Both the position numbers and the translations under genes were made by a program. From NCBI GenBank assembly GCA_037833965.1, contig AP031352.1, forward strand, positions 29,886,501 to 29,950,500: DNA of 64,000 nucleotides, given 5' to 3'. This DNA is from Marchantia polymorpha subsp. ruderalis (lineage: Eukaryota; Streptophyta; Marchantiopsida; Marchantiales; Marchantiaceae). The notes beneath the pieces are model-generated. The model was not told the origin of the DNA, made no database searches, and saw only the letters and a list, made by a program, of their open reading frames with translations. This document shows positions 12,196 through 31,440 of the stretch, piece after piece (within the stretch, counting starts at the first letter, position 1; each line of letters opens with the position of its first letter).

Positions 12196-12204
12196 AAGAT
12201 TTCA

Positions 12205-15200
12205 CTACGCCCTCGGAGTGAAAGAATCTGATCTTCGATGGAATAACTTCAACTTGTCGTGGTTGACTCGATCGAAGTGACGTCCTCCTAACTCCTTGAT
12301 GTCATAAGTGAAATTTCCCCACACCTTCTCAACTATGAAAGGTCCAAAATACTTAGGAAGAAACTTTTTCCTAGCTCTCTTGTATCTAATTGCATCAAAG
12401 AGCATCACCCAATCACCTTCCTTGAACGGCTTCAAGTTCTGGTTTCCACTTCGTTTGTCGTGATACTTCTTCTGCAACTGTTGAGCCCGCTCCACTCGTA
12501 CCATGGCTAATGCTCGAGCTTCCTCCAACTCCATCAATTGTTGTTGGCGAGACTTGATGGCTTCTGCTCCATTTGATTTCTTCAACCTTTGCTGGATTGT
12601 TGTGAATGTTGTCAAGTCAAACTGTATGGGAAGTTTTGACTCAACTCCATACACCATCCGAAAAGGTGAGTATCCGGTAGATGTCTTCCATGTTGTGCGA
12701 TACTCCCATAAGATAGCATGGAGCCTCTTGTCCCAATTGTGTTTACTCCCGTCCATGTCTGCATCCTTGGCCAACATCATACACAAAGTGTAGTTGGTCC
12801 GCTCCGCCAACCCATTAGCGTTAGGTTTGTAGGAAGTGGTCACTCGAGCCTTGATGGAAAAGTGCTCCAACATGGCTTGAATCATACTTCCCACAAATTC
12901 TCCTCCTCTATCTGATACTAACTCCAATGGACAACCAAATCGAGTAATGATTCTCTCATATAAAAATCTACCAACCTCCTTCTCATTAGTAGATTTAAGT
13001 GGTCTTGCCTCTACCCACTTCGTAAGATAATCTGTAGCTATCACAATGAACTTATTCCCTCGAGGAGTAAGATTCAAAGGACCTACAAAATCTATTCCCC
13101 ACTTTTCAAAAGGACCTAACACTGGTACAGAAATCATAGGAGGGGTTTTCATGGACTTTTTAGCAAAAGCTTGACACACATCACAACTTTTGCAATATTC
13201 CACACAATCCTTAAAAATACCCTTCCAATGATAACCAGCATCAAGAATTTTGAAGGCAGTTACCTTCCCCGCAAAATGTCCTCCACATACTGCACCATCA
13301 TGAAACTCCTTCATGAGTTGTAATGCCTCTCCTCTCCCAACCGCCCTTCGTAGAAGTCCGTCAGCTCCTTGATGAAAAAGTACCTTCTCCATGATCATAT
13401 AAGGTTGACATCTCTTCACTAATGCATTTTTCTCCCTTTGATGCATTCCTTGAGGAAACTCTCCTCTAGAGATGAAATCCCAAATTTCCTTGTACTCCTC
13501 CGGTACTGTTGTCACCGTGTCCATGACTAGCAAGTCCTCATCCGGAAAGGTGTCATCTACTGACTGATCTCCTCCATCATCATATGCTCTCGACATCAAA
13601 TCCGCATTAGCATGCTTCTTTCCAGGTCTATCCTCAATGGTATAATCAAACTCTGCTAGTAGTAGCTTCCATCTAGCTATCCTCCCTTCAGCATTAGGCT
13701 TGTTGAAAATGTATTTCAAAGCCTTATGATCAGTCACTATAGTGAATCTCCCACCCAACAAATAATGTCGAAACTTCTTAAGTGAGAAGATTACAGCTAA
13801 GGCCTCTCTCTCTGTCACTGAGTAATTCTTCTCCGCTTGAACCATTTGTCTACTAGCATAGGCAATTGGATGATCATGCTTTCCATCATCTAATTGACTC
13901 AAGGTGCATCCTACAGCAATATTTGATGCATCTGTGTAGAGAATGAAAGGTTTACCCCAATCCGGTTTCGCCAAAATTGGAGCCGTCACCAACGCCTTCT
14001 TGAGAACTTCGAACGCCTTCTTTGCAGCTTCATCCTTGAAAATGAGTTCGTACTCCACTCCCTTCTTCATGTAATTCGTCAAGGCATGAGCTTTGTTGGA
14101 GAAGGACAAGATGAACCGTCGATAGTACCCCACCATACCAAGGAATTGCCTCAACTTGGTTAAAGTCGCCGGAAAAGGTAACTCCATGATCCGTGTCACC
14201 TTCTCTGGGTCCACCGCTATACCATTCTTGGAGATGATATGCCCCAACAATAGGCCTTCCTCACATCCAAAAATGCATTTTTCTGGATTGAGTGAAGCCT
14301 TAGCTTCCTCCAGCCGTTGAAGTATTTTGATCAAATGATCAAAATGATCCGCTTTCCTCCCGTAAACACAAAAATCATCTATGAAATCCCTTACAAACTT
14401 TCCAATGAAAGGTTCAAACACTCTATTCATGAACCTTTGAAAAGTGGCAGGAGCATTACATAGACCAAACGGCATCACTCTAAAAGCGAAGGTTCCCCAT
14501 GGAGTGGTAAAAGTTGTTTTGAGTTGGTCTTCTAAGGCAATTTGGATTTGGTTATAGCCACTATAACCATCTCCAAAACTATACCACTCATGACCAGCAA
14601 CCTCCTCTAGAATCTCATCTATGAAAGGCAAGGGATAGTAGTCTTTCTTTGTGACAGCATTCAACTTTTTGTAATCTACGCACACTCGTAGCTTACCATT
14701 CTTCTTCTTCACTATCACAATTGGAGACACCCATTCAGAATTTTCTACCTCGTAGATGAAGCCAGCCTCCTTGAGCTTGTCGATCTCCTCCTTCACCACA
14801 AGAGCCGTAGGTGGATTTATTCGGCGTTGCTTTTGCCGAATAGGACGAGCTTTCTCCTCCAACTCGATGCGATGAGTCTCCAACGTCACATGCTTAAGAT
14901 CCTTGTAACTAAAGGCAAAAACATGAATATATTTGCGAAATATATCCAGAAACTTTGCCTTTTCCTCCTTGGTAACCTTGGGACCAAACCTGAGAGTGGA
15001 CAGTCGTCGACACACCTCCTCTTCGCTCATCTCCACTTTGTCAGGATCTTTCTTCACTCCAGGCCTAGGCAACAACTCCATGGCAGCAATGACTTGTACT
15101 TGAACATTATCATCAGAAGAGTACTCTGATGATGTTTCTTGATCAGAAGTTGAGATGTCTGTGTCAACTTCTGAAAAGCTACCACTCTCTTCACTCTCAG

Positions 15201-16977: not shown

Positions 16978-17192
16978 CTAATTTTTTTTTATTTTTATTT
17001 TTATTGGAAATTTATATGGGGCTTCCTAATACAATATAAACAACACTAACTCCATCCTTGAGTAATTCATCAAAGGAAACACAAAAGGAATTGGTTGTTC
17101 CAAGATAGCCAAAGCTCTCTCCTCTCCTAGGCATACGATGAGTCTTACCCTCATCATCATCTTCTCCATCATTCGAATGATGATCTCCATCT

Positions 17193-17636
17193 TCAGTTGG
17201 AGCTTGAACCCGCTGAGGTCACTTTCTCTGTTTCAGCACTTAGCTTGCCGTCAAACCCTTCCACAAGTGATTCCAGAAGTGCCTTCACTCCGCTGCATTC
17301 GTGTCCCGCTGGTAGCCCAATCACTCCGCAATTGTCACAGAAGGTCGCGCTTTGGGATTCATGTGGCGATGATGGTCCCAAGTGAAGTTTCAAATCTCCC
17401 AAGTTCCTCTTGCTCCTCAATCTTCTATCTTTGTTCCGTAGGGAACAATTGACAACCTTATGGCCCTCCTCTCCACAATAAAAACAAGTTTCACGTTTGA
17501 CTCTTGGAGATTGACTCACTACTCTTTCTTCAAACTCTACCTTGAATTCTCTTGTATTGGAGTCTAAAGACACTATAACATCCAAGCCTTGAGGTACTTT
17601 GGATAACCTAATCTTCCAACCTTCTTGTTCACTCAT
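17193..17636 (-). CDS. G2 upstream small zinc-knuckle frame
   Basis: A 147-codon frame on the element's own strand, between the 5' LTR and gag. It contains a canonical CX2CX4HX4C knuckle (C51, C54, H59, C64; CFYCGEEGHKVVNC) and a second Cys/His cluster (C100, C103, H112, C114) near the C-terminus, with a basic stretch between (RRLRSKR). The frame is separate from gag-pol, and about 215 bp lie between its stop and the gag start. It could be an extra nucleic-acid-binding product or a captured host fragment. I do not recognise it as a standard part of the family. Confidence 0.6.
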   Translation of the reverse strand: MSEQEGWKIRLSKVPQGLDVIVSLDSNTREFKVEFEERVVSQSPRVKRETCFYCGEEGHKVVNCSLRNKDRRLRSKRNLGDLKLHLGPSSPHESQSATFCDNCGVIGLPAGHECSGVKALLESLVEGFDGKLSAETEKVTSAGSSSN

Positions 17637-18292
17637 TTTCCCATAAGACAGAAACCACTCAAAAGACCTCTCCCAGAAACGCTATCTACTTGACGAAAAC
17701 TGTGAATGAAGAAATCAAAAACTTTTGCTTTGTTATCTTGCTTTTGTACCCCCTCAACTTCAAATCATAATAACTTTGTCTCTAGACGTGATCTCTCAGT
17801 GAAATTTTGACTCAAACGTAGCTTATCTTCTAATACACACTCGTACGAAGTTTCAAAGCCTAAATTGAAATACAGAAAAGTAATCAACTCTGTACAAACT
17901 TTCCAGAGAGCAGACTTTTGATACCCGTGAAAACCCCTCAACTTCTAACTCTCATATCTTTTTGTTTACACATGCTCTAGACCTAAAACAAAAACGTAAA
18001 CGTTCTCTATCTTCCAATCTAAAATCAATAAAAACTTTGAAGAAAAACTTCCAAAAATACTTCTTCGGTGTCTAAAATCACTTTTCTCTCAAAAAGACAT
18101 GTTTACGTGAACAAAACATACAAAATCACTTCTAGGCTATCATATGAGACTATGGGATAAACAAAGGGAATTTCGCTCTCAAGCACACTCTCCGCTCTTT
18201 CATTCCCCAATGTTAACACCAAGTGATCCCTCATGGATACTTTCTCTCGAGCTAGAAATCGAATCCTAAACATTCCGCCTTCTAGATTGAGG
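17637..18292 (-). other. G2 5' leader
   Basis: AT-rich leader of about 650 bp between the primer-binding site and the small upstream frame. It holds only short frames; nothing else is recognisable. Confidence 0.6.
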
Positions 18293-18309
18293 TCCCGGCA
18301 ACGGAACCA
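18293..18309 (-). other. G2 primer-binding site
   Basis: On the minus strand TGGTTCCGTTGCCGGGA, beginning TGG as expected for pairing with a tRNA 3' CCA. It lies four bases inside the 5' LTR end. The tRNA species is uncertain; the inner half resembles tRNA-Asp sites. Confidence 0.75.
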
Positions 18310-18313
18310 AAAA

Positions 18314-19172
18314 TGCAACCTCCGGGCTGACTCTCACTCAGGTTTACCTCTGATGGCTTTGTGGTAGCGCATCATGGTTCTAGAAGACTAAGATTCATAC
18401 TCTCACTCATGTCCCAAACACCTTCTCTTACAAACTCTCATGTATCACTCCAACTCACACACAACTCTCCTCACATCACCCTCTTCACATAAATGCAAAC
18501 ACACGTCGATACTCCAAGATACTCAAAAACTTCACTCCTTCATTACTGAAAGAAGTCCTCACACATGACTCTCCAAACTTGCTTGAGAGGTGCTACTCTA
18601 CCTCTCTATTTATACTACTTGAGAAGTTACCATAGTAACATGTGGTAATTTCTCCTAACTTACTTTTACCTAGGTAAGTTTGACTAACCTTCTCTACGTG
18701 GCAACATGCCATTGGCCTACCTAAACCTTCTAGAAGCTTCCGGAATCCAAGGTTGAGGTGGCGACATGCCATTGGAAGCTTTTAAACTTCTACAAGCTTC
18801 CTAGCCACTAAGTCAACATTAGACTTAGTCTAGCCAATCATCTTTCATACATTTAGTCAAACCAATCAAATCCAAGCTTCTAGTCAAATATCTAATCCCT
18901 TGGAATCTAGAACTTTTGTATAAGACAAAATAGAAGTGCTCACTCCTTGTAAAAGACAAAATAGAAGTGCATCACTCCATTCTTCTAGAACTCCGCTAAT
19001 TACTCCGCCAACTATAGACATTGTAGCTAAACTTAGTCATGACTAGATAAACTTAGTTATAACTAACTAGTTTAGTCATAACTAGCTAGTCTTAGCTATG
19101 CCTTGGCTAATCATCCTTATTCCCTTGACCACTTCTAAGACTTAGTACATATGTGCAACACCCGGTCTTACA
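18314..19172 (-). repeat. G2 5' LTR
   Basis: 859 bp, near-identical to 11323-12181. It is the 5' LTR in element orientation and holds the likely promoter (TATA at 18607-18614 on the minus strand). Confidence 0.95.
18607..18614 (-). promoter_or_regulatory. G2 TATA box
   Basis: TATAAATA on the minus strand inside the 5' LTR. Transcription would start about 30 bp to the left, leaving a plausible R-U5 before the primer-binding site. The same motif is at 11616-11623 in the other LTR. Confidence 0.55.
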
Positions 19173-20195
19173 GCACGCGTCAAGGCAGAAGGAGATTGGC
19201 CGAAGGGCGGTACGAACAAGTGTACCGCGCAAGGCGGAAAACTCGCCTTCGGCGCTACGCCCCCATGTCCGGAGGGTGACACGCTCGCGGAGTTCAAATC
19301 CGCCAATTCGAGCGTGAGAGTTTAATCGACGACGGCGGAGCGTGAAGCCGCGCGTGAGAGCGAAGACCGTTCCAGCGTACAGCCGGCGCGGCCATCAAGT
19401 GAGACGTTCTTCACGACCAAGAGCCGACCATGACCTTCGACCGGGCGGCGGAGAGCGTCCCATTCTTGAATTCGCGATTCCAATCTCTTGTGCGCGCTGC
19501 GCGCATCCATCTGCTGGCTGCGGACCATTCTCGTCGTCGTCGCACAGGAGATTTCTTGTTGATTGAGGGAGAAGTGAGTGCGCGCGATTTGGAATTGAGA
19601 GCGATTAGAGTTTGCCGAGAGAGAAAGAAACGCGGACAGTGCGGAAGTAGAATGAGCGGGCGAGCGAACCCCAGGAACGCAATGACGAGACCGAGCAGAT
19701 TGCGGATGGTGCCACTTCGCCTACCGCAGAACGGGCTGCGCGCTTTCGAAGAGCGCTTAATAGCAAGAAAGCTCGATTTCTTGCTATGGGGATGGAATTA
19801 CATCTGCGCGAATATGGTGCGCGAGTGGCTAGAGCCACAGGGACCACCCTCGCGCGGATTGCGTCCGCATGTTGACCGGTGGACAGTCCAAGATTGGGCG
19901 CAGGCGTTGGGAAGATGTGCTGGCATGCCAGGGCATCTCCTTTTCGACAGCGAGAGCATCAAGGTGACCAAGCAAGAAGAAACGCAATTTGTGGAGCTGT
20001 TCAAGACCGGGAGGTCTACCAAGAATGGGTACAGGACCCGTGATTACAAAGATCAATTTCGCCGGACTTTGTCCGCGGCGCTGATGCAATTACTGCAGCC
20101 GCACCGCGCCTGCTACATCACATTGTGGCAGGTCTCTTTTGTGGAGTGCGTCATCGAGGGAACTCCAATTCACTGGGCGAGCATCCTGCACAGGG
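19173..20195 (+). mobile_element. LTR0, family A LTR, continuation after G2
   Basis: Continues the LTR0 sequence exactly where G2 interrupted it, including the second GCAC copy. It ends at 20195, where the terminal TGTGGTACCCC of LTR1 begins inside the U3 frame. Sites near 19211 (GAAGGGCGG), 19430 (GAGCCGACC) and 19555 (CACAGGAG) agree with LTR3 and differ from LTR1 and LTR2. Confidence 0.88.
19430..20195 (+). pseudogene. U3 protein frame of LTR0, N-terminal part only
   Basis: About the first 255 codons of the family A U3 protein, through the conserved N-terminal domain. The rest is lost because another family A LTR was inserted here and the remainder of LTR0 is not seen downstream. Confidence 0.8.
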
Positions 20196-21439
20196 TGTGG
20201 TACCCCACTTTTGGCAATTTTGAGGAAATTAAAACATTTTTGGAAAACTGTACCCCGGCAGCATTGTAAATAGCCTTCGGTACATCAAAACAGAGTGAAT
20301 CCGGAAGATCGCGGGGATTCTCGAGGGATCTTGTAGAATCTGGGATTTGGGGTGCAGTAGTAAGGTCAGGCACCACCCTCCCTGCGAGCTCCGCAGTTAG
20401 GATCTCTACGGCGCAAGGCGCAAAACCCGCCTTCGGAGGTTGCGTCCGCGGCTGTAGGGAAACCCTCGTAATTAGGTAACCCTCGGGCGCCTTGACCAAG
20501 TTTGGATCCCGGTGGAAAGAGCTCGACGCGCTGATTCCAACGAGCCCAAGAACGCTTGGAACGGACGAGGACTTAGGGAGTTATCGCTACTGGAAGAAAC
20601 GGAGGCGGTCGCCCCCGGCGGAAGGATTTCGCCACCGGCGCGAATTCCGCCTGCGCGGAAGGGGGATTCAAGTTTTGTCCTATGCGCGGACGAAGGCGTT
20701 CGCCTGTGCACAGGCGAAGTAGGGTTAGGGAAGGCGCGAAGTCCGCCTACGCACAGGCGTTCGCCTGTGCACAGGCACTTCGGCGTCGGCGGGAGATCCG
20801 CCTTGGGCCCTAGAAATGCGCCTTGTGAGGTAGAAAGTGTACGGCGCCTTCCGCGCCAGCGCAGCGCAGCGTACGTCGGAAGACCGCCAGAGTAATCCAA
20901 TCGGTACGGACCATGCGGACGGCACGGGTGGATGCGCTCTTGGACGGACGGAGTTGCGGCGGCGGAAGCGCCGACGGAGAGACAAGGAACGGACAAACTG
21001 GACGGAGACGGCTGACCACGGTCAACGCCTTCCGCGCCAGCGCAGCGCCGCGGACGGAATTCGCCTGCGCACAGGCGAACGCCTGTGCACAGGAGGATGT
21101 TCAGGTTCCGCGCCGGCGGAGAATCCGCCGAGGCCCCTGCCTGCGCACAGGCAGGAGTTGAATTTTTGTCCGACATGCGGACGCACGCGTCAAGGCAGAA
21201 GGAGATTGGCCGAGGGGCGGTACGAACAAGTGTACCGCGCAAGGCGGAAAACTCGCCTTCGGCGCTACGCCCCCATGTCCGGAGGGTGACACGCTCGCGG
21301 AGTTCAAATCCGCCAATTCGAGCGTGAGAGTTTAATCGACGACGGCGGAGCGTGAAGCCGCGCGTGAGAGCGAAGACCGTTCCAGCGTACAGCCGGCGCG
21401 GCCATCAAGTGAGACGTTCTTCACGACCAAGAGACGACC
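20196..21439 (+). other. Non-coding U3 of LTR1, rich in GC palindromes
   Basis: 1.24 kb before the U3 ATG. It contains many short inverted repeats: TTCGCCTGTGCACAGGCGAA (20699-20718, a perfect 20-bp palindrome), further GCCTGTGCACAGGC and GCCTGCGCACAGGC copies near 20760, 21062 and 21140, and GCCTTCGGC-type hairpins. The stop-poor GC-rich composition opens long frames on both strands here; I regard these as shadows. It may hold a promoter for the U3 frame but no TATA is evident. Confidence 0.7.
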
Positions 21440-24400
21440 ATGACCTTCGACCGGGCGGCGGAGAGCGTCCCATTCTTGAATTCGCGATTCCAATCTCTTG
21501 TGCGCGCTGCGCGCATCCATCTGCTGGCTGCGGACCATTCTCGTCGTCGTCGCACCGGAGATTTCTTGTTGATTGAGGGAGAAGTGAGTGCGCGTGATTT
21601 GGAATTGAGAGCGGTTAGAGTTTGCCGAGAGAGAAAGAAACGCGGACAGTGCGGAAGTAGAATGAGCGGGCGAGCGAACCCCAGGAACGCAATGACGAGA
21701 CCGAGCAGATTGCGGATGGTGCCACTTCGCCTGCCGCAGAACGGGCTGCGCGCTTTCGAAGAGCGCTTAATAGCAAGAAAGCTCGATTTCTTGCTATGGG
21801 GATGGAATTACATCTGCGCGAATATGGTGCGCGAGTGGCTAGAGCCACAGGGACCACCCTCGCGCGGATTGCGTCCGCATGTTGACCGGTGGACAGTCCA
21901 AGATTGGGCGCAGGCGTTGGGAAGATGTGCTGGCATGCCAGGGCATCTCCTTTTCGACAGCGAGAGCATCAAGGTGACCAAGCAAGAAGAAGCGCAATTT
22001 GTGGAGCTGTTCAAGACCGGGAGGTCTACCAAGAATGGGTACAGGACCCGTGATTACAAAGATCGATTTCGCCGGACTTTGTCCGCGGCGCTGATGCAAT
22101 TACTGCAGCCGCACCGCGCCTGCTACATCACATTGTGGCAGGTCTCTTTTGTGGAGTGCGTCATCGAGGGAACTCCAATTCACTGGGCGAGCATCCTGCA
22201 CAGAGTGATGCGACAGCACGCGTTTGAGGAGAAGGGGGGAACTCTAAACCATCTTTCTCCTTTCCTCATCAATTTTTATCGACAGCGGAATTGTTTGACA
22301 GCGGCGGAGCTTGAACATTTTCCGCCATTGTCCATCGACCATCCCGGGAAGTATGTGCGGGAGAACGAGGTCGACACTGATGCGGAGGAGTCACCGACTT
22401 CTACCCCATCAAGACGGAGGGATGAAGGGAGACACACCCCTGCGGCGCGAGTGCCGCGGAAGCGGCGATGGAGGGAAGAGGCCGAAGAGGAGCAGCATCA
22501 AGAACTCTCTGCTCCCATTCGACCGCGGCCGCTGTGCGAGCCATACAGCCGGCCGAAGCAGAAGGCACGCAGACTGGTGTTGCCAGCTGACAGTGCAGAC
22601 ACGGCGACGATTGCGACGGAGATAGGAAGTGCGTCGCCAGAGAGACGAGAGGAAGCGCGGACGACCGCAGGAGCGACGGGCCACGCTGCAACCTCGTCGG
22701 GAGAGAGGCCGCCTACGGGCCAAGGGCCTCCGGAGTTACCACGTGCGATGCGGACAGATGTTCCGTTTGCGCACAGGCGAACCTCCGCGGACGGACGAGC
22801 CTCCGCGGATCGGCGAACACAAGTGGACGTGGATCTACGCTTACGCGTGGGAAGGAGCAGTCCGCCTGTGCACAGGCGCTCGCCTGTGCACAGGTCGCCT
22901 GTGCACAGGTCACCTGTGCACAGAACACCTCCACACGTGCCGCCTGTGCACAGGCAAGAATCACCCCCGTTCCAACGTAGGAAGGGGAAGGAGCCGGCGG
23001 AAGAACCGCCTACGAGACACCGGCCCTCGGGGCCAGACCCTCCGGCGCACCACGCGCCGCAATTCGCGCCTTCGGCGCCAGGGCCTTCGAGCCGAGGGGA
23101 TACGAGCAGAGAGCGTGCGGAGGCCGCACCATCGGCGGGAAGTACGCCGATAGATGCGCCTTCGGCGGTAGGGCCTATAGGCCAAGGAGCATCGGGCGTG
23201 CGGCCCCCGGCCATGTCGCCTTCGGCGATAGATGTCCGCGGCGCTACGCCTGCGGCGGACAAGGCGCCGGCACATGCGCCTGCGCACGGGCCGGGCACAG
23301 CCCCCACGGACCGATCAAGGGAGCAGCAGACGGAGGAGCGGAGTGACTGTCCGCGGGACGACATCTCGATGCGCGATGCGCAATCCAACCCCGCGCAGCC
23401 ACCCTCCGCTCGATCGCCTTCGGCGACGGACGACGGCGACAGAGAGAATGCGGTGGGCAATCAACAAGTAAGCGACAGGGATGCCGCTCGGATACATTCG
23501 CCTTCCGCCTTAGACATTTTGGCGACGAGCAGCGAGGCTGCAGCCGTGCCTTCGCAGGCAGCACACGTCGAGGACGTGCAGCCCCACTCGGGGCAGTCGC
23601 CGACGCAATCAATGGCGACTGAAATTCTCCACTCGGATGATGAGGACGGAGGCTCCACGGAAGAAATGTCAGGAGCAGAAGACACCGAGGAGGAGGAGGA
23701 GGAAATTGTTGGAGCGCCGGCGGCGGCGCTCTCTGAGCAGGTGATTCCGTTGCTGCGGTACTTGGATCGCAAGGTCGATAAATACGCCGACCCACTCCAG
23801 CCGGGATCTTACATCGAGTTAGTGCGCAGGCGGACTCGCACTAAAGTCCACACCAGCAAGCTATTAGCTAGAGTGGACCAGGAGTTGAGGGACTTGAAGG
23901 AGAAGCATGAGTGCTTGTGGGGACAGTACAAGCTTAATCAGAAATTCTACAAGCACTCCGAGAAGATGAAGGATGAGAAACTGGGCGAGCTCACCAAGGA
24001 GCAGGTGAAGGTCAAGGAAGCACTCAACTCTGAGCAGGCCCAGAATCGGATTTTGTCAGAGGAGCTCGTGCGACAGACGCGGTTGTTGGAACAATGTCAG
24101 CTCGCACGGCAGGCGGATGAAGAATTAATCCGCAGTTTACAGTCAGAGTGTGGCGAATTGAGGGCGCAACGTGCTGAAGCCGAATCGCAATTAGTGACCA
24201 TTGAAGAGGATCGCAGGAAGGAGGCGGATCGCACGAAGGTGGAGACGGCGAGGCGAGTCGCCCACTGTCTCAAGGGCTACGCCCACTGGGAAGTGAAGGC
24301 GCAGGAGAAACTCACACTGCGTGAGTTTGAATTGCGCGCAGCCGGGTTGTTGTCAGGCGACAGTAGGAGTCGGCGGAAGGTAGCGAAGAAGCTCGAGGCC

Positions 24401-24592
24401 TTTCTGTCGAAGGCACAGGATACCATGTCCGCCCTCGAGGGGGAGGTGTCCGCGGCGTTGCAGCGGTTGGGACTGCGTAGTCGAGCGGAAGAGTGGCAGG
24501 GTAGGGAGCTAGTGCGCGGCAGTCGGCCGCGCAGGAGACGTAGTACAGGTTCCGCGGAGTGTAGTGTAGCGTGGTTCCGTGCAGGCGTGTAG
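21440..24592 (+). CDS. LTR1 U3-encoded protein, 1050 aa, function unknown
   Basis: Uninterrupted frame inside the LTR. Residues about 85-315 form a conserved domain shared with family B (LRLPQNGLRAF, LDFLLWGWNYIC, LGRCAGMPGHLLFDSES, NGYRTRDYKDRFRR, NHLSPFLINFYR). Residues about 316-760 are disordered and rich in Pro, Arg, Ser and Ala, with PVHR repeats made by palindromic DNA and an acidic patch (EDTEEEEEE). From about 763 comes LLRYLDRK, and about 800-935 is a strong coiled coil; the tail is Arg-rich. No signal peptide or membrane segment is seen. Met85 aligns with the family B start, so residues 1-84 may be a family A extension or the shorter form may be the real start. The frame ends 36 bp before the TATA box, so it is in U3 and would be carried at the 3' end of genomic RNA. 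The protein encoded by LTR2 appears identical. Confidence 0.8.
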   Translation: MTFDRAAESVPFLNSRFQSLVRAARIHLLAADHSRRRRTGDFLLIEGEVSARDLELRAVRVCRERKKRGQCGSRMSGRANPRNAMTRPSRLRMVPLRLPQNGLRAFEERLIARKLDFLLWGWNYICANMVREWLEPQGPPSRGLRPHVDRWTVQDWAQALGRCAGMPGHLLFDSESIKVTKQEEAQFVELFKTGRSTKNGYRTRDYKDRFRRTLSAALMQLLQPHRACYITLWQVSFVECVIEGTPIHWASILHRVMRQHAFEEKGGTLNHLSPFLINFYRQRNCLTAAELEHFPPLSIDHPGKYVRENEVDTDAEESPTSTPSRRRDEGRHTPAARVPRKRRWREEAEEEQHQELSAPIRPRPLCEPYSRPKQKARRLVLPADSADTATIATEIGSASPERREEARTTAGATGHAATSSGERPPTGQGPPELPRAMRTDVPFAHRRTSADGRASADRRTQVDVDLRLRVGRSSPPVHRRSPVHRSPVHRSPVHRTPPHVPPVHRQESPPFQRRKGKEPAEEPPTRHRPSGPDPPAHHAPQFAPSAPGPSSRGDTSRERAEAAPSAGSTPIDAPSAVGPIGQGASGVRPPAMSPSAIDVRGATPAADKAPAHAPAHGPGTAPTDRSREQQTEERSDCPRDDISMRDAQSNPAQPPSARSPSATDDGDRENAVGNQQVSDRDAARIHSPSALDILATSSEAAAVPSQAAHVEDVQPHSGQSPTQSMATEILHSDDEDGGSTEEMSGAEDTEEEEEEIVGAPAAALSEQVIPLLRYLDRKVDKYADPLQPGSYIELVRRRTRTKVHTSKLLARVDQELRDLKEKHECLWGQYKLNQKFYKHSEKMKDEKLGELTKEQVKVKEALNSEQAQNRILSEELVRQTRLLEQCQLARQADEELIRSLQSECGELRAQRAEAESQLVTIEEDRRKEADRTKVETARRVAHCLKGYAHWEVKAQEKLTLREFELRAAGLLSGDSRSRRKVAKKLEAFLSKAQDTMSALEGEVSAALQRLGLRSRAEEWQGRELVRGSRPRRRRSTGSAECSVAWFRAGV

Positions 24593-24628
24593 CGTAGTGC
24601 AGTGTAGTGCTAGGTAGGACTTAGAAGG

Positions 24629-24657
24629 TATAAAATAGTTCCAGGCGTTTTGCCTGG
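24629..24657 (+). promoter_or_regulatory. LTR1 TATA box and downstream hairpin
   Basis: TATAAAATA (24629-24637) is followed by CCAGGC-GTTTT-GCCTGG (24641-24657). Every A LTR has both. The expected start of element transcription is near 24660, so the hairpin lies between the TATA and the start or at the RNA 5' and 3' repeat. Confidence 0.75.
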
Positions 24658-24659
24658 GG

Positions 24660-25602
24660 TTCTTTCCCATCAGAAGTGCAGATCAGGAACCCATTTCCTT
24701 TGCGTGTTTGTGTCCTTGAGTTCTGTCACCACGCACGAGGAGTTACAACTTAGCGTTCCGCATTTTGTAGCTGAAGGCCTTCGGCCGAATGTTCAGAGCT
24801 AGTACATTGGTTAGAGACTTGAGTAGTTCGGATCTGCACCTGCGGGTGACTGCCGATGCTCAGAGCCAGTGACTAGTTAGATACTTGAACAGTTTCGCCC
24901 CTACACCTTCGAGTGTTTCTTTCTGATTGTACTCCTTGGGATTTTTCCCCTGAATGCCAAAGTGAAGTTTTGCTACTTCGTGTAAGCCTTGGTTGTAAAT
25001 TCAGGTTACGCTGCAGCAGGTGCCTTGAGGGTAACCCCTGTAGTATTTCTGGGAATGACAAGTGCCTGAGAATTCAAACTCTTCAATAGACTGTTGTTGT
25101 GTTACTGGAATGTTTCACAGTGAGTCCTTCAGTGCGGACCTGTGTTCTCTGCGCGTTTTGTGAGTTGAGAGTGTTGTTCACCGCGTAGGAGTGACTTCGA
25201 TCCGAAGTAGGCAGTCCAAACCGGGTTTCCTACACTAGCAGCAAGCTAGTGGAAGTGTTGTAAAAGCCGGAGTTGGAAGTCACTGCCCGCAGCTTTGCCG
25301 AGTGTACTCTTGAGAGACTTTCCCCCTGAAATCTTGAAGTAGAGGTCCTAACGGATCTCTGGGTTGTATTTCTGTAGTTTCAGGTGTGTGTGTGTGTGTG
25401 TGTGTTACGCTGCACTGTGCGACCTCCGAGTGCGCTCCGAGTGGACACTTGCAGTATTTCTGGGAGTGACAGTCGCCTGAGAATTCAAACTCATCAATAG
25501 TCTGTTAAACGTGACACTTTGTACCCTGTGTGTTCCTCTGTCCCTGTGGGTTCGACCTTTCTACCACTATATTGCAGTTTTAGCCTTTAGTGGGTTATTA
25601 CA
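24660..25602 (+). other. R-U5 leader of LTR1 with internal duplication and (TG)n
   Basis: Non-coding. Two related segments, around 25045-25095 and 25458-25510, share TATTTCTGGGA-TGACA and GCCTGAGAATTCAAACTC and then CAATAG-CTGTT, about 410 bp apart, so part of this leader is an old duplication. A (TG)n tract lies at about 25384-25405 and differs in length among copies. Several local hairpins are visible, for example CACTAGC-AGCAA-GCTAGTG near 25240. Confidence 0.7.
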
Positions 25603-25642
25603 TAAGAAGCCGACAACTTCTTTTTGGCGCCGCTGCCGGGGA
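25603..25642 (+). other. Primer-binding site with 22-nt spacer (internal 1)
   Basis: TGGCGCCGCTGCCGGGGA at 25625-25642 matches the tRNA-Asp type of plant Ty3/Gypsy primer sites. It is separated from the LTR end by 22 bases containing AAGAAG...CTTCTT, which can pair. The same 22-nt gap occurs at 36845-36866, 53431-53452 and, in family B, 59766-59787. Confidence 0.85.
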
Positions 25643-25677: not shown

Positions 25678-25719
25678 ATGCTCGGTGAATGTCGACTGGG
25701 GCTGGCGGGAGCAACCTAA
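25678..25719 (+). CDS. 13-codon upstream frame overlapping the gag start
   Basis: MLGECRLGLAGAT, then stop. It begins 11 bases before the gag ATG and overlaps it in another frame. Family B has a frame of the same length and position (59838-59879, MLGECRRAIVWET). It may tune gag initiation; this is inferred from conservation only. Confidence 0.45.
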   Translation: MLGECRLGLAGAT

Positions 25720-28562
25720 GTGCTAGAGCTGTCCGCAAGTTCCGACGAGATTCAGAGAAGGCCGTGGAAGAGACACGGCGTCAAACCAAGAAAACACCAA
25801 AAAGAGTACCTAAGCCTAGTTCGGCCGACATCCTTGGGGAACCTACCCCCGGCGACTCGGAACCAAACTTGGTGCTTACAGTTCTACTAGATATTCCTTG
25901 CACGGACCCGCCTAGTGAAGTAGAACCGACCGCCCGAGGACCGTCGACAGACACACTGATGGCGGACGGACAAGCCAATGTGCGGCTACCTCAGCCGATT
26001 ACTAAACATTCCTACCCGAAGTACAAAGGGAGTGGGGATGACGACGATGCAGATTCATACATCAAGTTATTCGAGTCGGTGTCTATTGCCAATCGCGAGA
26101 TCGCAGACGACGACCGACTAAGGATCTTTCCAAGCCTTCTGCGGAAGAAAGCGAGGAGTTGGTATAATCACGAGAGCATCGATCCGACAGGGTTGACAAC
26201 ATGGGCCCAGCTGAAGGAGAAGTTCCTTCGTCGCTTTCGCGAGCTCGGCTACGACAGCCGGGTTTTGACGAAGTTACGTAATTTGCAGCGAGAGAAGAAG
26301 GAGAGTCTGCGTGACTACACTGAGAGATTTATGGACCTCCTCGACAGAATACCGAAAACAGGACCAGGGTCCCCTTTCTCGGTACAACAAGCTGTGGATT
26401 GGTACGTGACCGGTTTAACTCGGGAGATGGAGACTTTTTGCCGACGCAGCAAGTGCGACACTATTGAGGATGTGATTGCATCGGCAGAAGCCTTCGAAAC
26501 TTCCACTCTCAACCGCAGAGGGAGAGAGAGACGGGAGTCGAAGGAGCGCAAACCGAAGGGAGGGCGAAGACGGCGTAGAGGTACAACTCCGTCATCGGAG
26601 GAATCGTCTTCGGACGAGAACCGTTCTTCATCCGAAGAAGAGGAAACCTCATCGTCGGAGGAGGAGAAGAAGAGGAAGAAGCATGGGTCAGCGAAGAAAA
26701 AGGGCATCCGACGAGTGACTACGGACAGAGCGCCGGGAGATATAGCTTCGAAGATGGAGACCCTTGTGAAGGACTTCGCCGATCTCAAGGTTCAAGTGGT
26801 AGGCGGGCATGATCGCCGAAAATCACCCGGGAGAGTGCGAGCGAACTTATGGTGTACTACGTGCGGGGCGGTGGGACATGCAAACACCGAGTGCCTTACC
26901 ACCCGGCCGTCATATCCAGTCAACGCAGTAGAGTGGGCGCAACCGTACTATGGAGAGCACCCTCAGTACTATGGAGAGCACCCTCAGTACTATGGAGAGC
27001 ACCCTCAGTACTATGGAGAGGCTAGCGAAGAGACAGCCTACGCCGTCCAGTCGGTGCCTACCCCTCCTGCGGTTTCAGCAATGCAAGTTCCACGATATAT
27101 TCCGGTGGATCGGGCCACTACGGTACCTGTGAGGCGGAGAGCACCTCCAGGGACGTTTGACCCACCGCCACCGCGAGCTTGTTATAATTGCGGGGAAGTT
27201 GGGCACTTCTCACCGCAGTGTCCCCATCCAAAAAGGCGAAACGATTATGCTCCGACATGTAGCAATTGCAAGAAGGTCGGGCACACTGCGCCAGAGTGTG
27301 ATCAGCCACCAGTCCCTCGGCCAGTGGTACGATTTGTGAACACTCCTGCCAAGGAGGACGTGCAAGTTAACCAGGTCGAAGTAGGTTCAGACGGGGATGG
27401 CGAAGACGAAGAATGGCCGGCTGAAGAGGTTATGTGCGCACGGGTCGAAACTCGTAGCTCCAAGAAATCCAAGGAGCAAGAGCGCGACACTCGCAAGCAC
27501 GAACGGAGAACCGCCGACCGGACGGCAAAAGGAAAGGAGAAGACATCCAGCAAGTCCGACTCGCGACCTGCTCGGAAGTCTTCGACTACGCGGGAGGCAC
27601 CAGCAGTGCGCCCCCAGGCAGCAGTCGAGGACGAGCCAGTGCGCCTACTGAAACGGGACTATGCTCCGGATATCCGCAACGAGGTAGCCAACCTGTTGCA
27701 GGAAGCGATCCGCACTCAAAAGGATCCACCGCGGCCAGACCTGACATCCTCCCTTGGGGCGAAGTTGGCAGCCACCGTGGAACCTCGCAGAGCGTCGCCG
27801 ACCCCGGCGCCCCAACGCGCCCACTATGACTTGGTTGAAGATCTCGGGAGTCGAAAAGTGAACATTACGTTCAAGCAGCTCTTGGAGGACAATAAGACGT
27901 ATCGGAGAATGTTGATGCTTTCGCTACGGCATCCGCGGAAGCCGCGCGCGTCCACATCCTCTCAAGTATATCAAGTGGAGAGCGAAGACCAAGGGCCACC
28001 CGAGATCGATGTGGAGATAGCAGGATGTTGTGTACGCAGAGTGCCAATCGACTCTGGATCAGGAGTCAACATAATGACGGAGGATACAGCGAGAGCCTTG
28101 GGGTTCAGTCAATACGAACCCTCGAAGCGTGTGTTGAGATTAGCGGATCAGACGCGGAGAATGCCTGCAGGTATGCTGCGCAATGTCAAGACAACCATCG
28201 GGGGTGCGGACTTTCGGTTGACGTATATCATCCTTCAACCGATGATGAAGCAGGGCTATGACGTTCTGCTCGGGCGACCATGGCTATATGGTGCACAAGT
28301 CAGATGTGACTGGCGAAGACATCGCCTTAAGTTTCCTCATCCTTCGGAACCGACCAAAACCATTACAGTGCCCTGGAATAGGGTCAGGCACGAAGGAGAG
28401 ACCCCATCGACAAGTGCAGGTTACACATCGGGCGAGGACAGTGAGTCGACCGCGCGATCGGATTCCAGTGGTACCGAATCCGATTACTTCGTGGGATTCG
28501 TTGCCTGCTGTTCGGTGGAAGAAGAAGAAGAGACGGAAGCTATTCAGCCGGAAGACGAATAG
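25689..28562 (+). CDS. gag-pro: Family A Gag-protease (internal 1)
   Basis: 957 aa, looks whole. Parts: basic N-terminus; capsid-type Gag domain at about residues 115-270 (DSYIKLFESVSIANRE, ARSWYNHES, FLRRFRELGYDSRV, VDWYVTGL); a Ser/Glu/Lys-rich linker at about 300-340; a first CX2CX4HX4C knuckle at C389; a YYGEHPQ tandem repeat; two further knuckles at C498 and C524; then a retropepsin-like protease with DSGSGVNIM (Asp788) and VLLGRPWL. It assembles the particle, binds RNA and processes the polyprotein. The start is ATG 25689 (MSTGAGGSNLSARA), matched by MSTSDSVGNLSARA in family B. It ends at a UAG in a leaky-type context with pol in the same frame. Confidence 0.92.
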   Translation: MSTGAGGSNLSARAVRKFRRDSEKAVEETRRQTKKTPKRVPKPSSADILGEPTPGDSEPNLVLTVLLDIPCTDPPSEVEPTARGPSTDTLMADGQANVRLPQPITKHSYPKYKGSGDDDDADSYIKLFESVSIANREIADDDRLRIFPSLLRKKARSWYNHESIDPTGLTTWAQLKEKFLRRFRELGYDSRVLTKLRNLQREKKESLRDYTERFMDLLDRIPKTGPGSPFSVQQAVDWYVTGLTREMETFCRRSKCDTIEDVIASAEAFETSTLNRRGRERRESKERKPKGGRRRRRGTTPSSEESSSDENRSSSEEEETSSSEEEKKRKKHGSAKKKGIRRVTTDRAPGDIASKMETLVKDFADLKVQVVGGHDRRKSPGRVRANLWCTTCGAVGHANTECLTTRPSYPVNAVEWAQPYYGEHPQYYGEHPQYYGEHPQYYGEASEETAYAVQSVPTPPAVSAMQVPRYIPVDRATTVPVRRRAPPGTFDPPPPRACYNCGEVGHFSPQCPHPKRRNDYAPTCSNCKKVGHTAPECDQPPVPRPVVRFVNTPAKEDVQVNQVEVGSDGDGEDEEWPAEEVMCARVETRSSKKSKEQERDTRKHERRTADRTAKGKEKTSSKSDSRPARKSSTTREAPAVRPQAAVEDEPVRLLKRDYAPDIRNEVANLLQEAIRTQKDPPRPDLTSSLGAKLAATVEPRRASPTPAPQRAHYDLVEDLGSRKVNITFKQLLEDNKTYRRMLMLSLRHPRKPRASTSSQVYQVESEDQGPPEIDVEIAGCCVRRVPIDSGSGVNIMTEDTARALGFSQYEPSKRVLRLADQTRRMPAGMLRNVKTTIGGADFRLTYIILQPMMKQGYDVLLGRPWLYGAQVRCDWRRHRLKFPHPSEPTKTITVPWNRVRHEGETPSTSAGYTSGEDSESTARSDSSGTESDYFVGFVACCSVEEEEETEAIQPEDE
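26946..27020 (+). repeat. 21-bp tandem repeat in gag (YYGEHPQ)
   Basis: Three full 21-bp units plus a partial fourth, encoding YYGEHPQ. Internal 2 has only one full unit plus a partial one (around 43588-43620). The count varies between copies of the same family. Confidence 0.9.
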
Positions 28563-28568
28563 CAATTA
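28560..28568 (+). promoter_or_regulatory. gag-pro/pol junction: UAG CAA UUA read-through context
   Basis: The gag-protease frame ends TAG followed by CAATTA, a perfect match to the UAG-CAR-YYA tobamovirus-type leaky stop. pol continues in the same frame. Internal 2 is identical here, and family B has UAG CAA CUA (62684-62692), so the codon and context are kept in both families. Stop read-through of this kind is known in plant LTR elements such as SIRE1. Confidence 0.7.
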
Positions 28569-31403
28569 ACTGTGGGACTGGGAAGGAGTGAGACGAGTCA
28601 CACCGAGGGCATTGTCGACCCTAGTGACTGTCATGAAGTACAACTCAGTCCCGGCAAGTGCTTGAAGGTATCAAGCGCAGTGAGAGGAGACGAGCTAAGG
28701 AAAGTACAGGCGTTCCTTAGCCACTATGTCGACGTCTTCGCCTGGAAGATCGAGGACATGAAGGGGATACCTGCACGGTATGGGGAGCACCGTATCGATT
28801 TACTGGACGACTCAGTACCCATACGACAGCGCCAGTATCGCCTCAACCCAAAGTACTCCTTGCTAGTGAAAGAGGAGATAGATAAGTACTTGAGCGCTGG
28901 TATTATTTACCCTGTGCTCAGCAGTGAGTGGGTGTCGCCGATTGTTATCGTACCCAAGAAGTTGACGGGTAAGATACGAGTGTGTCAGGATTTCCGGAAG
29001 TTGAATGCGGCAACACGCAAGGATCATCACCCGTTACCATTCACGGATGCCATTCTAGACCATGTTGCCGGACATGAATGTTATAGCTTCCTGGATGGGT
29101 TCTCAGGTTACAATCAGGTGTCTATCCGTGAACAGGACAAGGATAAAACTACGTTCACAACCGACTGGGGAACTTACGCATACCACAAGATGCCCTTCGG
29201 TCTGTGCAACGCGCCTGCCACCTTTCAACGGATGATGACCAATATCTTTCAGGAACAACTGAGGAAGTTCCTGGAGATATTCATAGATGACTTCTGTGTC
29301 TTTGGGAAGCGGTCTGAACACCTAAGTCACTTGAAGCAGACCTTCGATAAATGTAGAGAGAGCAGTTTATCGCTGCATCCCGAGAAGTGCTTTTTCTTCA
29401 TGACTAGTGGGATCTTGTTGGGTCATCGGGTCTCGGCAGAAGGCATTGCGGTGGACATCGAGAAGGTCAAGGTTATACTCGAGCTTGAGCCACCCACGAA
29501 TCTAAGAGAGCTGCGAGCATTCCTGGGTCATGTGGGCTACTACCGAAGATTCATACACATGTATGCAATACTGGCGGCGGACCTGACCAAGTTGTTGAAG
29601 AAGGACGAGCCTTATGCTTGGGGTGCGAACCAGCAGACAGCATTTGAAGCTCTGAAAGCGAAACTCACGACTGCTCCCGTACTAAGGAGTCCAGACTGGA
29701 ATCGACCATTCCATGTTTACGTTGACACTTCGGCATTCGCCATCGGTGTAGTACTGAGTCAAAAGGATGACAACAAAAAGGACTACCCGATCTACTTCGC
29801 GAGCCGACAGCTGTCTCTAGCAGAGCGGAAGTACACCACGACGGAGAGAGAAGCGTTGGGGATGGTGTACTCCTGTAAAAAGTTCCGTCACTACCTAATC
29901 TGTTACGAGTTTGTGTTCCATGTGGACCACTACGCATTGCAACACCTAGTTAAGAAAGCCGACCTATCCGGTCGAATCGCCAGGTGGGTGTTATTACTAC
30001 AAGAGTTCACCTACACAGTCCAGACCAGGAAAGGGGTGCACCACGAAAATGCGGATTACTTGTCCCGATTATGGACACAGCCGACAGAGGAGGAATTGGT
30101 GGACGATTTTCCAGATGAAGAGTTATTTCAGTTGTCTGCAGGACATGAGTCCCGCTATGCCGACCTGTATCGATATCTGCTAACCCTCCAGTGCCCCGAG
30201 GGCATGGATTTGGAACAGCGAACTGTCTTTATTCATAAGGCAGGCCCGTATCAACTCCAGTAGGGGGTTTTGTTCAAGAAGATGGCGGATGAGCGCTTAT
30301 GCAGATGCCTGGAGGAATCAGAAGTACCAAGAATAGTGAGTGCGATGCACACAGAGGAGGCGGGTGGACACTATGCCACCAGGAACACGGTCACAAAGAT
30401 CCTAAATGCGGGGTATTGGTGGCCGACCATGTTTAAGGATGTTCTCGATTACATCCGCAAGTGCGACAGTTGCCAGAGGACGGGGAGACCGACGCCTACA
30501 ACACGATGGCCCCTTACTCCCATCATGCCTCTAGCACCTTTCGAAAAGTGGGGTATTGACTTTGTAGGGCCGATACAACCAGTGACTAGAAGTACACGAA
30601 GGCGCTACATTCTGGTAGCAACGGACTACGCCACCAAAATGGTAGAGGCCAGAGCCACCAGAAGGGATGATGCTGCCACAGTGGCAGCATTCTTGTTTGA
30701 GTCGATCATCACACGCTACGGATGTCCCTTAGAGCTAGTGAGCGACCGGGGCACGCATTTTCTGAATCAGATCATCGAAGATCTGACACGGTACTTCCAC
30801 ATCAAGCACCGGAAGACTACTCCATACAATCCTAAGGCAAATGGACTGACGGAGAAGTACAATGGACTGCTGTGTAAAATACTACTCAAGGTCACGGTGA
30901 ATCACGCTCACGACTGGGATACGAAGCTAGCAGCCGCTCTATGGGCGTACCGCACAGCTGAGAAGATCACGACCAAACAGACACCATACTTTCTGGTGTA
31001 TGGGCAACACCCGATCCTCCCAATCGAATTTGAAGTACCCACACATCGAACGATGGATTTGCAGAGGATGGGCGCAGAGGAGAGTCAGCTCTACAGGTTA
31101 CAGGAGGTCACGCTGCTGGATGAAAGGAGAAGAGACGCCGAAGATCGCACCAGGAAAATCCAGCTCCGCCGAAAGGAGAGGTACGATAAAAAGATCAAAC
31201 CGGTACAACTGCAGGCGGGTGATTTGGCATTGCTCTACGACAGCAGGCATGCCAGATTCCCAGGCAAACTGCACCTAAGGTGGATGGGACCTTACAGGGT
31301 TGTCGAAGTCTTCCCGAATGGGTCCATCCAACTTGCGGACCTGGCCGGCGATTTGTTAGGCACCCGAGTGAACGGGTGGCGGTTGAAGAAATACCACATG
31401 TGA
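28563..31403 (+). pseudogene. pol: Family A pol (internal 1), about one break
   Basis: Reverse transcriptase (VCQDFRKLNAATRKDHHPLPF; MPFGLCNAPATFQRMM; catalytic FIDDFCVFG near 29280), RNase H (VYVDTSAFAIGVVLSQ near 29718), zinc-binding HHCC region (near 30349-30480), integrase core (KWGIDFVGP near 30547, VSDRGTHF near 30740, NGLTEKYNG near 30840) and a GPY module (RWMGPYRVVEV near 31280). No chromodomain is seen. The domain order is that of Ty3/Gypsy. The region is broken, with about one break; the copy in internal 2 looks whole. Confidence 0.9.
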
Positions 31404-31427: not shown

Positions 31428-31440
31428 GAGGAGGGGGGCA
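31428..31440 (+). other. Polypurine tract before LTR2
   Basis: GAGGAGGGGGGCA directly precedes the LTR. Identical at 48027-48039. Confidence 0.85.

What the first reader, a model, noticed from the sequence alone, without database searches (positions are those of the whole stretch)
20196..25602. Giant LTRs with a large protein frame in U3, in two related Ty3/Gypsy families
Every family A LTR here (5.4 kb) and both larger B LTRs (4.9 kb where complete) contain a frame of about 850-1050 codons with a conserved N-terminal domain and a C-terminal coiled coil. It is uninterrupted in LTR1, LTR2 and the right-hand B LTR. The solo LTR with its target duplication shows that the frame is truly inside the LTR. 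Its position upstream of the TATA box makes it a U3 gene, comparable in place to the sag gene of mouse mammary tumour virus. I know of no described plant LTR element with this layout. The protein resembles hypothetical proteins I recall from liverwort annotation, some of which may be these LTR frames. Possible roles (particle function, chromatin targeting, silencing suppression) are speculation.
Basis: partly seen in the sequence, partly recalled or inferred. Interest (0 to 1): 0.88.

Follow-up and report, generated by a model that had tools for sequence, protein, structure and literature searches.

The report
Liverwort jumping gene with LTR-borne gene
In a Marchantia liverwort, families of retrotransposons carry a large, apparently functional protein gene inside each of their own end repeats, a place that in plant elements normally holds control signals, so that even lone end repeats left behind can keep a copy of the gene.

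Summary
The 5.4-kb family A repeat (20196-25602) and the 4.9-kb family B repeat (54899-59765) are real LTRs. Nine A copies are solo LTRs with perfect 5-bp target duplications (8 of 22 other genome places examined, plus LTR3). The B element is complete, with the same 5-bp duplication on both sides and LTRs that differ at 1 of 4,867 bases. Each LTR type holds one long frame, apparently in U3, ending 33-36 bp before the TATAAA box that the tested LTRs share. It is not explained by composition (0 of 500 shuffles in each of 16 tests). It is under purifying selection (A-A' dN/dS 0.27; A-B 0.19, synonymous sites near saturation; shared variants 45 synonymous, 22 non-synonymous). The likely product is about 966 aa (A) or 851 aa (B). 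In the last protein search, 80 of 90 relatives are named Marchantia polymorpha and 10 are unnamed. One annotated 'gene' (AXG93_4874s1160) proved to be a 3.8-kb solo LTR. No convincing domain matched and structure prediction failed. My best reading: an accessory gene in the 3' (env/nef) position that lies downstream of the polypurine tract and is therefore copied as part of U3. Expression route and role are inferred.

The parts
20196..25602 (+). LTR1 of family A (5,407 bp, TGTGGTACC...TTATTACA), 5' LTR of the element 20196-36844
21440..24592 (+). Longest U3 frame in LTR1 (1,050 codons from the first ATG)
21692..24592 (+). Probable coding part of the U3 gene, from Met85 (966 aa): conserved N-terminal domain (Met85 to about residue 345), variable Pro/Ser/Ala-rich linker with basic clusters, acidic patch and conserved LLRYLDRK motif, then a C-terminal part with modest heptad signal
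   Evidence: start by A/B homology and by M. polymorpha models; features
24629..24635 (+). TATA box (TATAAAA), the only TATAWA site in LTR1; same place in LTR2, LTR3, LTR4, the minus copy (which has a second site inside its frame) and B
24660..25602 (+). Inferred R and U5 (leader), non-coding but 65-84% identical to B in 200-bp bins
   Evidence: TSS position inferred from the TATA box
25625..25642 (+). Primer binding site TGGCGCCGCTGCCGGGGA, 22 nt after the LTR end (tRNA-Asp-like; the tRNA name is recalled, not tested)
25689..28562 (+). gag-protease frame ending in TAG (followed by CAATTA)
28563..30263 (+). RT-RNase H in the same frame as gag; its TAG at 30261 is CAG in the second copy
30264..31403 (+). 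Integrase frame, no chromodomain hit, TGA 37 nt before LTR2
31428..31440 (+). Polypurine tract GAGGAGGGGGGCA directly before LTR2
31441..36844 (+). LTR2 of family A, U3 frame 32685-35837 intact with the same protein as LTR1
38128..43521 (+). LTR3, solo LTR with 5-bp target duplication CAAAC (38123-38127 / 43522-43526); frame broken by a 1-nt deletion
48040..53430 (+). LTR4 of family A; frame with a stop at codon 249
1..5343 (-). A-type LTR of an older subfamily (about 91% identical), frame 1429-4140 ends at codon 907; cut by the window edge
10330..20195 (+). LTR0, first 2 kb of another A LTR (10330-11322 and 19173-20195), split by a second gypsy element and cut at the start of LTR1
54899..59765 (+). 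5' LTR of the complete family B element (4,867 bp); its 3' LTR lies beyond the window and differs at 1 base; TSD CTCCT on both sides
56250..58805 (+). U3 gene of family B from the conserved Met (851 aa; 906 codons from GTG at 56085)
58839..58844 (+). TATA box of the B LTR, 33 bp after the stop
53847..54898 (+). Piece of a B-like LTR cut inside its U3 frame by the B insertion
5344..7559 (+). 3' remnant of a B-like LTR

Best explanation
These are Ty3/gypsy LTR retrotransposons (gag-PR, RT-RH, INT; tRNA-type PBS; 5-bp TSD) of Marchantia. Their U3 region contains a genuine accessory gene of about 850-970 codons, which ends 33-36 bp before the core promoter. The polypurine tract lies upstream of the gene instead of downstream, so each round of reverse transcription copies the gene into both LTRs as part of U3, and recombination to a solo LTR keeps it. 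In genomic RNA the gene is the last cistron, after integrase, the position of env, nef or sag. I think it most likely arose as, or works like, the sense extra ORF that other plant elements carry between pol and the 3' LTR. It is probably expressed from a spliced subgenomic RNA or from a promoter in the first 1.2 kb of U3. Its product is probably a nuclear, oligomerising protein that acts in trans for the family, in RNA or particle handling, or in keeping the LTR transcribed. Shown: placement in the LTR, presence in both LTRs, selection on the protein, recent activity, several families. Inferred: U3 rather than R (from the TATA box), the route of expression, the nuclear location, oligomerisation and the role.
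For: LTR identity: TSDs on 9 solo LTRs, a full A element with TSD GGCAT and a full B element with TSD CTCCT. In B, 36 of 50 scored copies have a same-strand partner at 10-12.5 kb, the LTR pair distance. Coding and selection: shuffles; LTR1/LTR2 7 of 7 ORF changes synonymous; A-A' dN/dS 0.27 (N-domain 0.08), out-of-frame 1.03 and 1.55; A-B 0.19, out-of-frame by region 0.97-1.73. Over 24 copies, shared variants are 45 synonymous to 22 non-synonymous and singletons 45 to 53 (4 stops counted as non-synonymous), Fisher p=0.011; all 4 stops are singletons. U3 placement. Position after integrase: INT stop 37 nt before the LTR in A and B. An M. polymorpha gene model runs from integrase straight into the N-domain (P0089). 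Basic clusters and no strongly hydrophobic 19-residue stretch; acidic patch.
Against: No transcript, protein or start-site data were available. A TATA box alone does not prove that the frame lies in U3. No relic polypurine tract was found between ORF and TATA, so the idea that the tract shifted upstream of an older internal gene has no direct trace. Synonymous sites are near saturation between A and B (dS 2.8, undefined for the C-terminal part), so that ratio is rough; the A-B linker is only weakly constrained (0.48), and the U3 protein changes faster than gag-protease (pN 0.38 against 0.25). Singletons also show some codon-position bias, so selection and drift are not cleanly separated. The heptad signal is modest (54 of 228 windows, maximum of 200 shuffles 49, in A; 46 of 228, maximum 48, in B), so the coiled coil is not firmly shown. 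Both AlphaFold runs failed (pLDDT 45 and 39), so no fold supports any role.
Confidence: 0.62

Rival explanations
1. The frame is an ORF0 at the 5' end of the genomic RNA: transcription starts near the LTR start, the frame lies in R/U5, and it is translated before gag, comparable to RIRE3/RIRE8/Retrosat2.
For: Retrosat2 has an LTR over 3.2 kb with a long R (245-2266) and an extra ORF0 upstream of gag-pol (PMC3485330, passages). The LTR ends close to gag (86 nt).
Against: The TATAAA shared by the LTRs tested lies after the frame. The non-coding sequence from TATA to the LTR end is conserved between A and B (65-84%), whereas the first 1.2 kb is not (36-57%). Retrosat2 ORF0 lies upstream of the gag-pol ORF and is not described as part of the LTR in the passages read.
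Confidence: 0.15
2. A host gene was captured by chance into one LTR and is a passenger: intact because the copies are young, with no function for the element.
For: Capture of host genes by plant LTR elements is known (PMC7264820, parts 1 and 2 of 3 read). Families A and B are young.
Against: Families A, A', B and C (N-domain of C 43% identical to A) all keep the frame in an LTR. Selection is seen between A and B and among shared variants. No single-copy host relative was seen in the three protein searches or the three own-genome protein searches answered, but these score only the best candidates; the one candidate proved to be a solo LTR.
Confidence: 0.08
3. Self-regulation: the U3 protein is an anti-silencing or transcription factor that binds motifs in its own LTR and works in trans from solo LTRs.
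For: Gene dose rises with every LTR; 6 of the 9 solo LTRs found keep an intact frame. The protein has basic clusters and an acidic patch. A-type LTRs carry 11-12 copies (up to 2 mismatches) of the palindrome GCCTGTGCACAGGC.
Against: The palindrome is absent from B, and part of the A sites lie inside the ORF linker. No DNA-binding domain was found. No methylation or binding data.
Confidence: 0.3
4. The frame is an accident of GC-rich, stop-poor sequence.
For: The LTR is 58% GC and has long overlapping frames on the other strand.
Against: The longest frame in any shuffle was 591 aa against 1,050. The other five frames of the ORF region hold 12-37 stops. Five of 6 indels seen in the ORF (window copies and L024) are multiples of three. 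Synonymous bias.
Confidence: 0.01

Closest known systems
MMTV sag (and HIV nef overlap): retroviral genes in U3 (recalled)
   Same: A protein frame in U3, copied into both LTRs, downstream of the polypurine tract and last in the genomic RNA
   Different: Liverwort retrotransposon, no env found in the window elements, protein about three times larger than sag (size recalled), no match to a retroviral protein of that kind in Pfam
Sense extra ORFs between pol and the 3' LTR of plant OTA/SIRE elements (aORF-3S / eORF-3'F; PMC7264820, PMC6317226)
   Same: Accessory frame after integrase, same strand, function unknown
   Different: The review places those in the internal region; here the polypurine tract is upstream of the gene and the gene is in the LTR. 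None of the domains named for them (PF10536, PF04195, PF03078) was hit. The survey passages do not say whether frames inside LTRs were counted as eORFs
Retrosat2/RIRE3/RIRE8 ORF0 elements of grasses (PMC3485330)
   Same: Unusually long LTRs plus one extra frame of unknown function
   Different: ORF0 lies upstream of the gag-pol ORF; here the frame is inside the LTR and apparently in U3
CRM centromeric chromoviruses (PMC3059260)
   Same: Coding sequence that enters an LTR: the polyprotein of group A runs into the 3' LTR
   Different: There it is the end of the polyprotein; here pol stops 37 nt before the LTR and a separate gene starts inside it
[not shown]
   Same: Non-chromovirus gypsy elements reported from Marchantia
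   Different: Lineage not tested here by phylogeny; no LTR gene is mentioned in the passages read

Membership tests
Ty3/gypsy LTR retrotransposon | Paired LTRs with TG...CA ends and a short target duplication | tested here: met
Ty3/gypsy LTR retrotransposon | gag, protease, RT, RNase H, integrase in that order | tested here: met
Ty3/gypsy LTR retrotransposon | PBS after the 5' LTR and polypurine tract before the 3' LTR | tested here: met
   PBS read by eye, 22 nt from the LTR; tRNA match not tested
OTA/Tat lineage | RT/RH/INT phylogeny within OTA | not tested
   no reference sequences at hand; only RT 48% and INT 39% identity to a second gypsy element of the window
OTA/Tat lineage | No chromodomain after integrase | tested here: met
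   Pfam scan at E up to 1, no chromodomain
Plant eORF-3'F / aORF-3S element | Extra sense ORF in the internal region between pol and 3' LTR | tested here: not met
   INT stop is 37 nt from the LTR; the ORF is inside the LTR
Plant eORF families PF10536, PF04195, PF03078 | Domain match | tested here: not met
   no hit in P0001, P0002, P0004 at E up to 1 nor in the 20 members of alignment A2 at E up to 5
U3-gene retroelement (sag-like layout) | Frame wholly in U3, upstream of the promoter, in both LTRs | tested here: met
   in both LTRs; promoter position inferred from the TATA box
U3-gene retroelement (sag-like layout) | Expression of the U3 frame from a subgenomic RNA | not testable with these tools
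   no RNA data
MMTV sag protein family | Sequence homology to Sag | tested here: not met
   no such Pfam hit; Sag itself was not compared directly
ORF0 elements (Retrosat2 type) | Extra ORF internal and upstream of gag | tested here: not met
   only 86 nt lie between LTR and gag
CRM-type coding LTR | Polyprotein continues into the LTR | tested here: not met
   TGA at 31401 before LTR2, stop also 37 nt before the LTR in B

The most novel reading that the evidence does not exclude
The LTR is itself a self-contained trans-acting gene unit. The U3 gene makes a family-specific factor that keeps LTR promoters active or helps replication, and the solo LTRs, most of which keep intact frames in the sample seen, remain working suppliers of that factor long after gag and pol are gone. 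The LTR would then be selected as a gene, and formation of a solo LTR would not be inactivation.
Probability: 0.25. Interest if true: 0.88.

Novelty: new variant of a known kind. Interest (0 to 1): 0.74.

Why it matters
LTRs of plant retrotransposons are treated as control regions, and the review of extra ORFs (PMC7264820, parts 1 and 2 of 3 read) places them in the internal region. A gene that lives in U3 is doubled at each transposition and survives in solo LTRs, so the usual view of solo LTRs as dead needs a second look. For Marchantia, a model plant, it could explain a large set of hypothetical proteins: 80 named records were hit, and one was traced to a solo LTR. It also gives a system with young, intact copies in which the role of an LTR gene could be tested. 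In the listings of ten literature searches (titles and abstract starts, showing 20 of 69, 12 of 30 and 10 of 20 papers; one search was about readthrough) I saw no described plant element of this layout. Most subscription papers are not searchable, so absence from print is not shown.

Tried and rejected
Structure: two AlphaFold runs on the N-terminal domain (20 and 37 sequences) gave mean pLDDT 45 and 39; no fold search was made because such models mean nothing. Domain links: I suspected Transposase_32 (PF20167), which I recalled as similar in pattern. It had no match in the own genome, but nothing rang in the control genomes either, and neither P0001, P0002 nor P0004 hit it in Pfam, so I do not claim it. 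Weak hits are single-member, coil- or acid-type matches that I did not pursue: SCNM1_acidic (E 0.0013), CENP-K (0.0018), DUF7761 (0.067), SMC (0.043). PDB profile search: 0 matches. Viral contigs: 22 pattern matches, none a relative.

Domesticated host gene: P0072 first looked like one (100% match, a long frame among broken relatives), but the locus is a 3,841-bp solo LTR with TSD TAGTT/TAGTT whose longest open stretch is 296 codons. Rejected.

Palindromic binding sites as a shared target: present in A, absent in B. Rejected as a shared element. The strand-biased GCCTTCGGC repeat (6 in A, 5 in B, 0 in C) is unexplained.

Old polypurine tract between ORF and TATA: none. Splice sites: candidate donors CA|GTGAGT (A) and TCA|GTAAGT (B) in the leader line up by eye in the alignment (positions), but the B-left copy lacks it and I found no common acceptor. 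Not claimed.

Papers PMC12885004 and PMC10714607 (passages): nothing on an LTR gene. Lineage by phylogeny: not done, no reference set.
Full report
What was checked. The window is G000:C3:29886501-29950500 of a 241-Mb genome in 9 contigs. The genome is Marchantia polymorpha or very close to it: a M. polymorpha subsp. ruderalis protein (P0072) matches it at 100% over residues 1-254 and 99% over 364-537. No other gene was compared for this.

LTR anatomy. Self-comparison and end inspection give these family A LTRs: LTR1 20196-25602, LTR2 31441-36844, LTR3 38128-43521, LTR4 48040-53430, a partial LTR0 (10330-11322 plus 19173-20195), and an older minus-strand copy at 1-5343. LTR1, internal region, LTR2, internal region and LTR4 form a tandem chain. 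LTR3 is a solo LTR inside the second internal region, with target duplication CAAAC. The polypurine tract GAGGAGGGGGGCA sits directly before LTR2 and LTR4. A PBS (TGGCGCCGCTGCCGGGGA) sits 22 nt after the LTR end. The B element runs from 54899 past the window end. Its 3' LTR is L033:1565-6431, it differs from the 5' LTR at 1 of 4,867 positions, and CTCCT stands on both sides.

Is the frame really inside the LTR? Yes. I examined 22 non-window family A places out of the 44 scored (that list is sorted by score and capped, so it favours intact copies; two of the 22 are the two LTRs of one element). Of these, 8 are solo LTRs with a perfect 5-bp target duplication, 5 are 5' LTRs followed by the PBS region, 7 are 3' LTRs preceded by the end of the internal region, 1 has internal sequence on both sides and 1 is truncated. 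One complete A element has GGCAT on both sides (L010 and L006). Six of the nine solo LTRs (window LTR3 included) keep an intact frame; LTR3, L019 and L027 do not. For B, 50 of 50 scored copies are 99-100% identical to the query, 48 of 50 have no stop, and 36 of 50 have a same-strand partner at 10-12.5 kb, which is the LTR-to-LTR distance.

Is the frame more than chance? In 500 Markov samples at each of four orders, for LTR1, its ORF region, LTR B and its ORF region, none reached the observed length; the longest frame was 591 aa. LTR1 and LTR2 differ at 7 sites inside the frame, all synonymous. Against the minus-strand copy dN/dS is 0.27 (N-terminal domain 0.08, linker 0.51, C-terminal part 0.18), with out-of-frame controls of 1.03 and 1.55. 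Between A and B it is 0.19 overall, with synonymous sites near saturation (dS 2.8; undefined for the C-terminal part), 0.22 in the N-domain and 0.48 in the linker; out-of-frame controls are 0.97-1.73 for the N- and C-terminal parts and 0.99-1.09 for the linker. The U3 protein changes faster than gag-protease between A and B (pN 0.38 against 0.25). Among 24 full family A copies (4 of the window and 20 of 22 loci; L016 and L023 dropped as incomplete; 6 further loci left out as duplicates), 19 have an intact frame from Met85 on. Variants shared by two or more copies are 45 synonymous and 22 non-synonymous. Singletons are 45 synonymous, 49 non-synonymous and 4 stops (Fisher p=0.011, third-position bias p=2.6e-8). 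This is the pattern expected when source elements are selected and inserted copies drift. Singletons still show some codon-position bias (2.4, 3.3 and 4.2%), so the separation is not perfect.

Where in the LTR? There is one TATAWA site each in LTR1, LTR2, LTR3, LTR4 and B; the minus copy has one more, inside its frame. The shared site begins 36 bp after the A stop and 33 bp after the B stop. From there to the LTR end, A and B are 65-84% identical without coding; the first 1.2 kb of the LTR is 36-57% identical. I take the frame as U3 and the rest as R-U5. This is inference from sequence, not from RNA.

The protein. The likely products are 966 aa (A) and 851 aa (B). There is a conserved N-terminal domain of about 260 residues with a core around KNGYRTRDYKDR...LQP...WQV.FVE. 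A variable linker with basic clusters (PRKRRW, RPKQKARR) follows, then an acidic patch, an LLRYLDRK motif and a C-terminal part. No 19-residue stretch has a mean hydropathy above 1.3, so there is no sign of an env-type membrane anchor. Heptad signal is modest: above the maximum of 200 shuffles in A (54 against 49), just below it in B (46 against 48). Pfam and NCBIfam give nothing usable, the PDB profile search nothing, and AlphaFold failed twice.

Distribution. Three protein searches (each scored about 8,000 candidates that share short words with the query) returned 4, 28 and 90 proteins. In the last, 80 of 90 are named M. polymorpha hypothetical proteins and 10 bear only the source tag 'lgn'. 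Among the M. polymorpha models, P0089 runs from integrase (68% to family A) directly into the U3 N-domain, so the same order exists there; whether that junction is a real splice is unknown. An older subfamily (C) is present as relics: L029 is a 3,841-bp solo LTR with TAGTT/TAGTT, and L031 is a 3,315-bp LTR-like unit with a one-mismatch duplication. L030 and L032 show nested LTR pieces of this group. Every copy that I fetched lies in LTR-type sequence; most of the 108 matches were not fetched.

Mechanism. The gene lies downstream of the polypurine tract and upstream of the promoter. Plus-strand synthesis from the tract and template switching must therefore copy it into both LTRs (established retrotransposon biology). 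In genomic RNA it would be the last cistron, as sag and nef are (recalled). How it is translated is open: candidate splice donors exist but are not convincing. The protein could be a trans-acting accessory factor or a self-regulator; I favour a trans-acting accessory factor, and rate self-regulation as the form most worth testing.

Relation to known systems. The review places extra ORFs in the internal region (PMC7264820, parts 1 and 2 of 3 read); the survey counts extra ORFs up- and downstream of the polyprotein and does not, in the passages read, say whether LTR frames were included (PMC6317226). Retrosat2 has long LTRs with an ORF0 upstream of gag-pol (PMC3485330, abstract and passages). 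CRM polyproteins run into the 3' LTR (PMC3059260, passages). Marchantia Tat elements without extra RNase H are reported (PMC10508981, passages). A separate, selected gene wholly inside a plant LTR was not seen in the listings of ten searches. MMTV sag is the nearest layout, from memory.

Verdict. The architecture is a new variant of a known kind. The role is open.

Noticed in passing
28560-28568, 45159-45167, 62684-62692: gag-protease ends in TAG followed by CAATTA (A, two copies) or CAACTA (B), matching the CAR YYA context reported as essential for UAG readthrough in tobacco mosaic virus (PMC2754532, passages), with RT in the same frame. This suggests programmed stop readthrough for pol.
   Followed up: partly
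25603-25642 and 59766-59805: The PBS lies 22 nt after the LTR end instead of a few nt, and the spacer AAGAAG-CCGACAA-CTTCTT could form a small hairpin that B keeps with a G-U pair (read by eye).
   Followed up: no
LTR1 positions 507-944, 2669-2747 and 3083: A-type LTRs hold 11-12 copies (up to 2 mismatches) of the palindrome GCCTGTGCACAGGC, in upstream U3 and again inside the ORF linker; absent from B and from the control LTR.
   Followed up: partly
LTR A and LTR B: The 9-mer GCCTTCGGC occurs 6 times in A and 5 times in B, always on the coding strand, and not in C, the A internal region or the control LTR.
   Followed up: no
G000:C6:10769932-10815297 and C7:7660968-7748376: Five B LTR frames in a row at 10,662-bp spacing (tandem LTR-internal chain), and five A copies at exactly 21,852-bp spacing.
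   Followed up: no
20195, 54898, L009, L021, L024: Several elements sit inside LTRs of their own kind, at least two of them inside the U3 frame (LTR1 into LTR0; B into a B-like LTR). Could be plain abundance or a target preference.
   Followed up: no
11323-19172 (minus strand): A separate gypsy element with one 1,590-codon gag-pol frame, 859-bp LTRs (99.9% identical) and its PBS 4 nt from the LTR: a more usual element in the same window.
   Followed up: partly
LTR1 position 2031 (A) and 1884 (B): A polypurine run (GAGGAGAAGGGGGGAA / AAGAAGAGAGGGGAGGAA) resembling the PPT lies inside the U3 frame, where it appears to code for the conserved EEKGG/EERGG stretch (coding position by eye).
   Followed up: no
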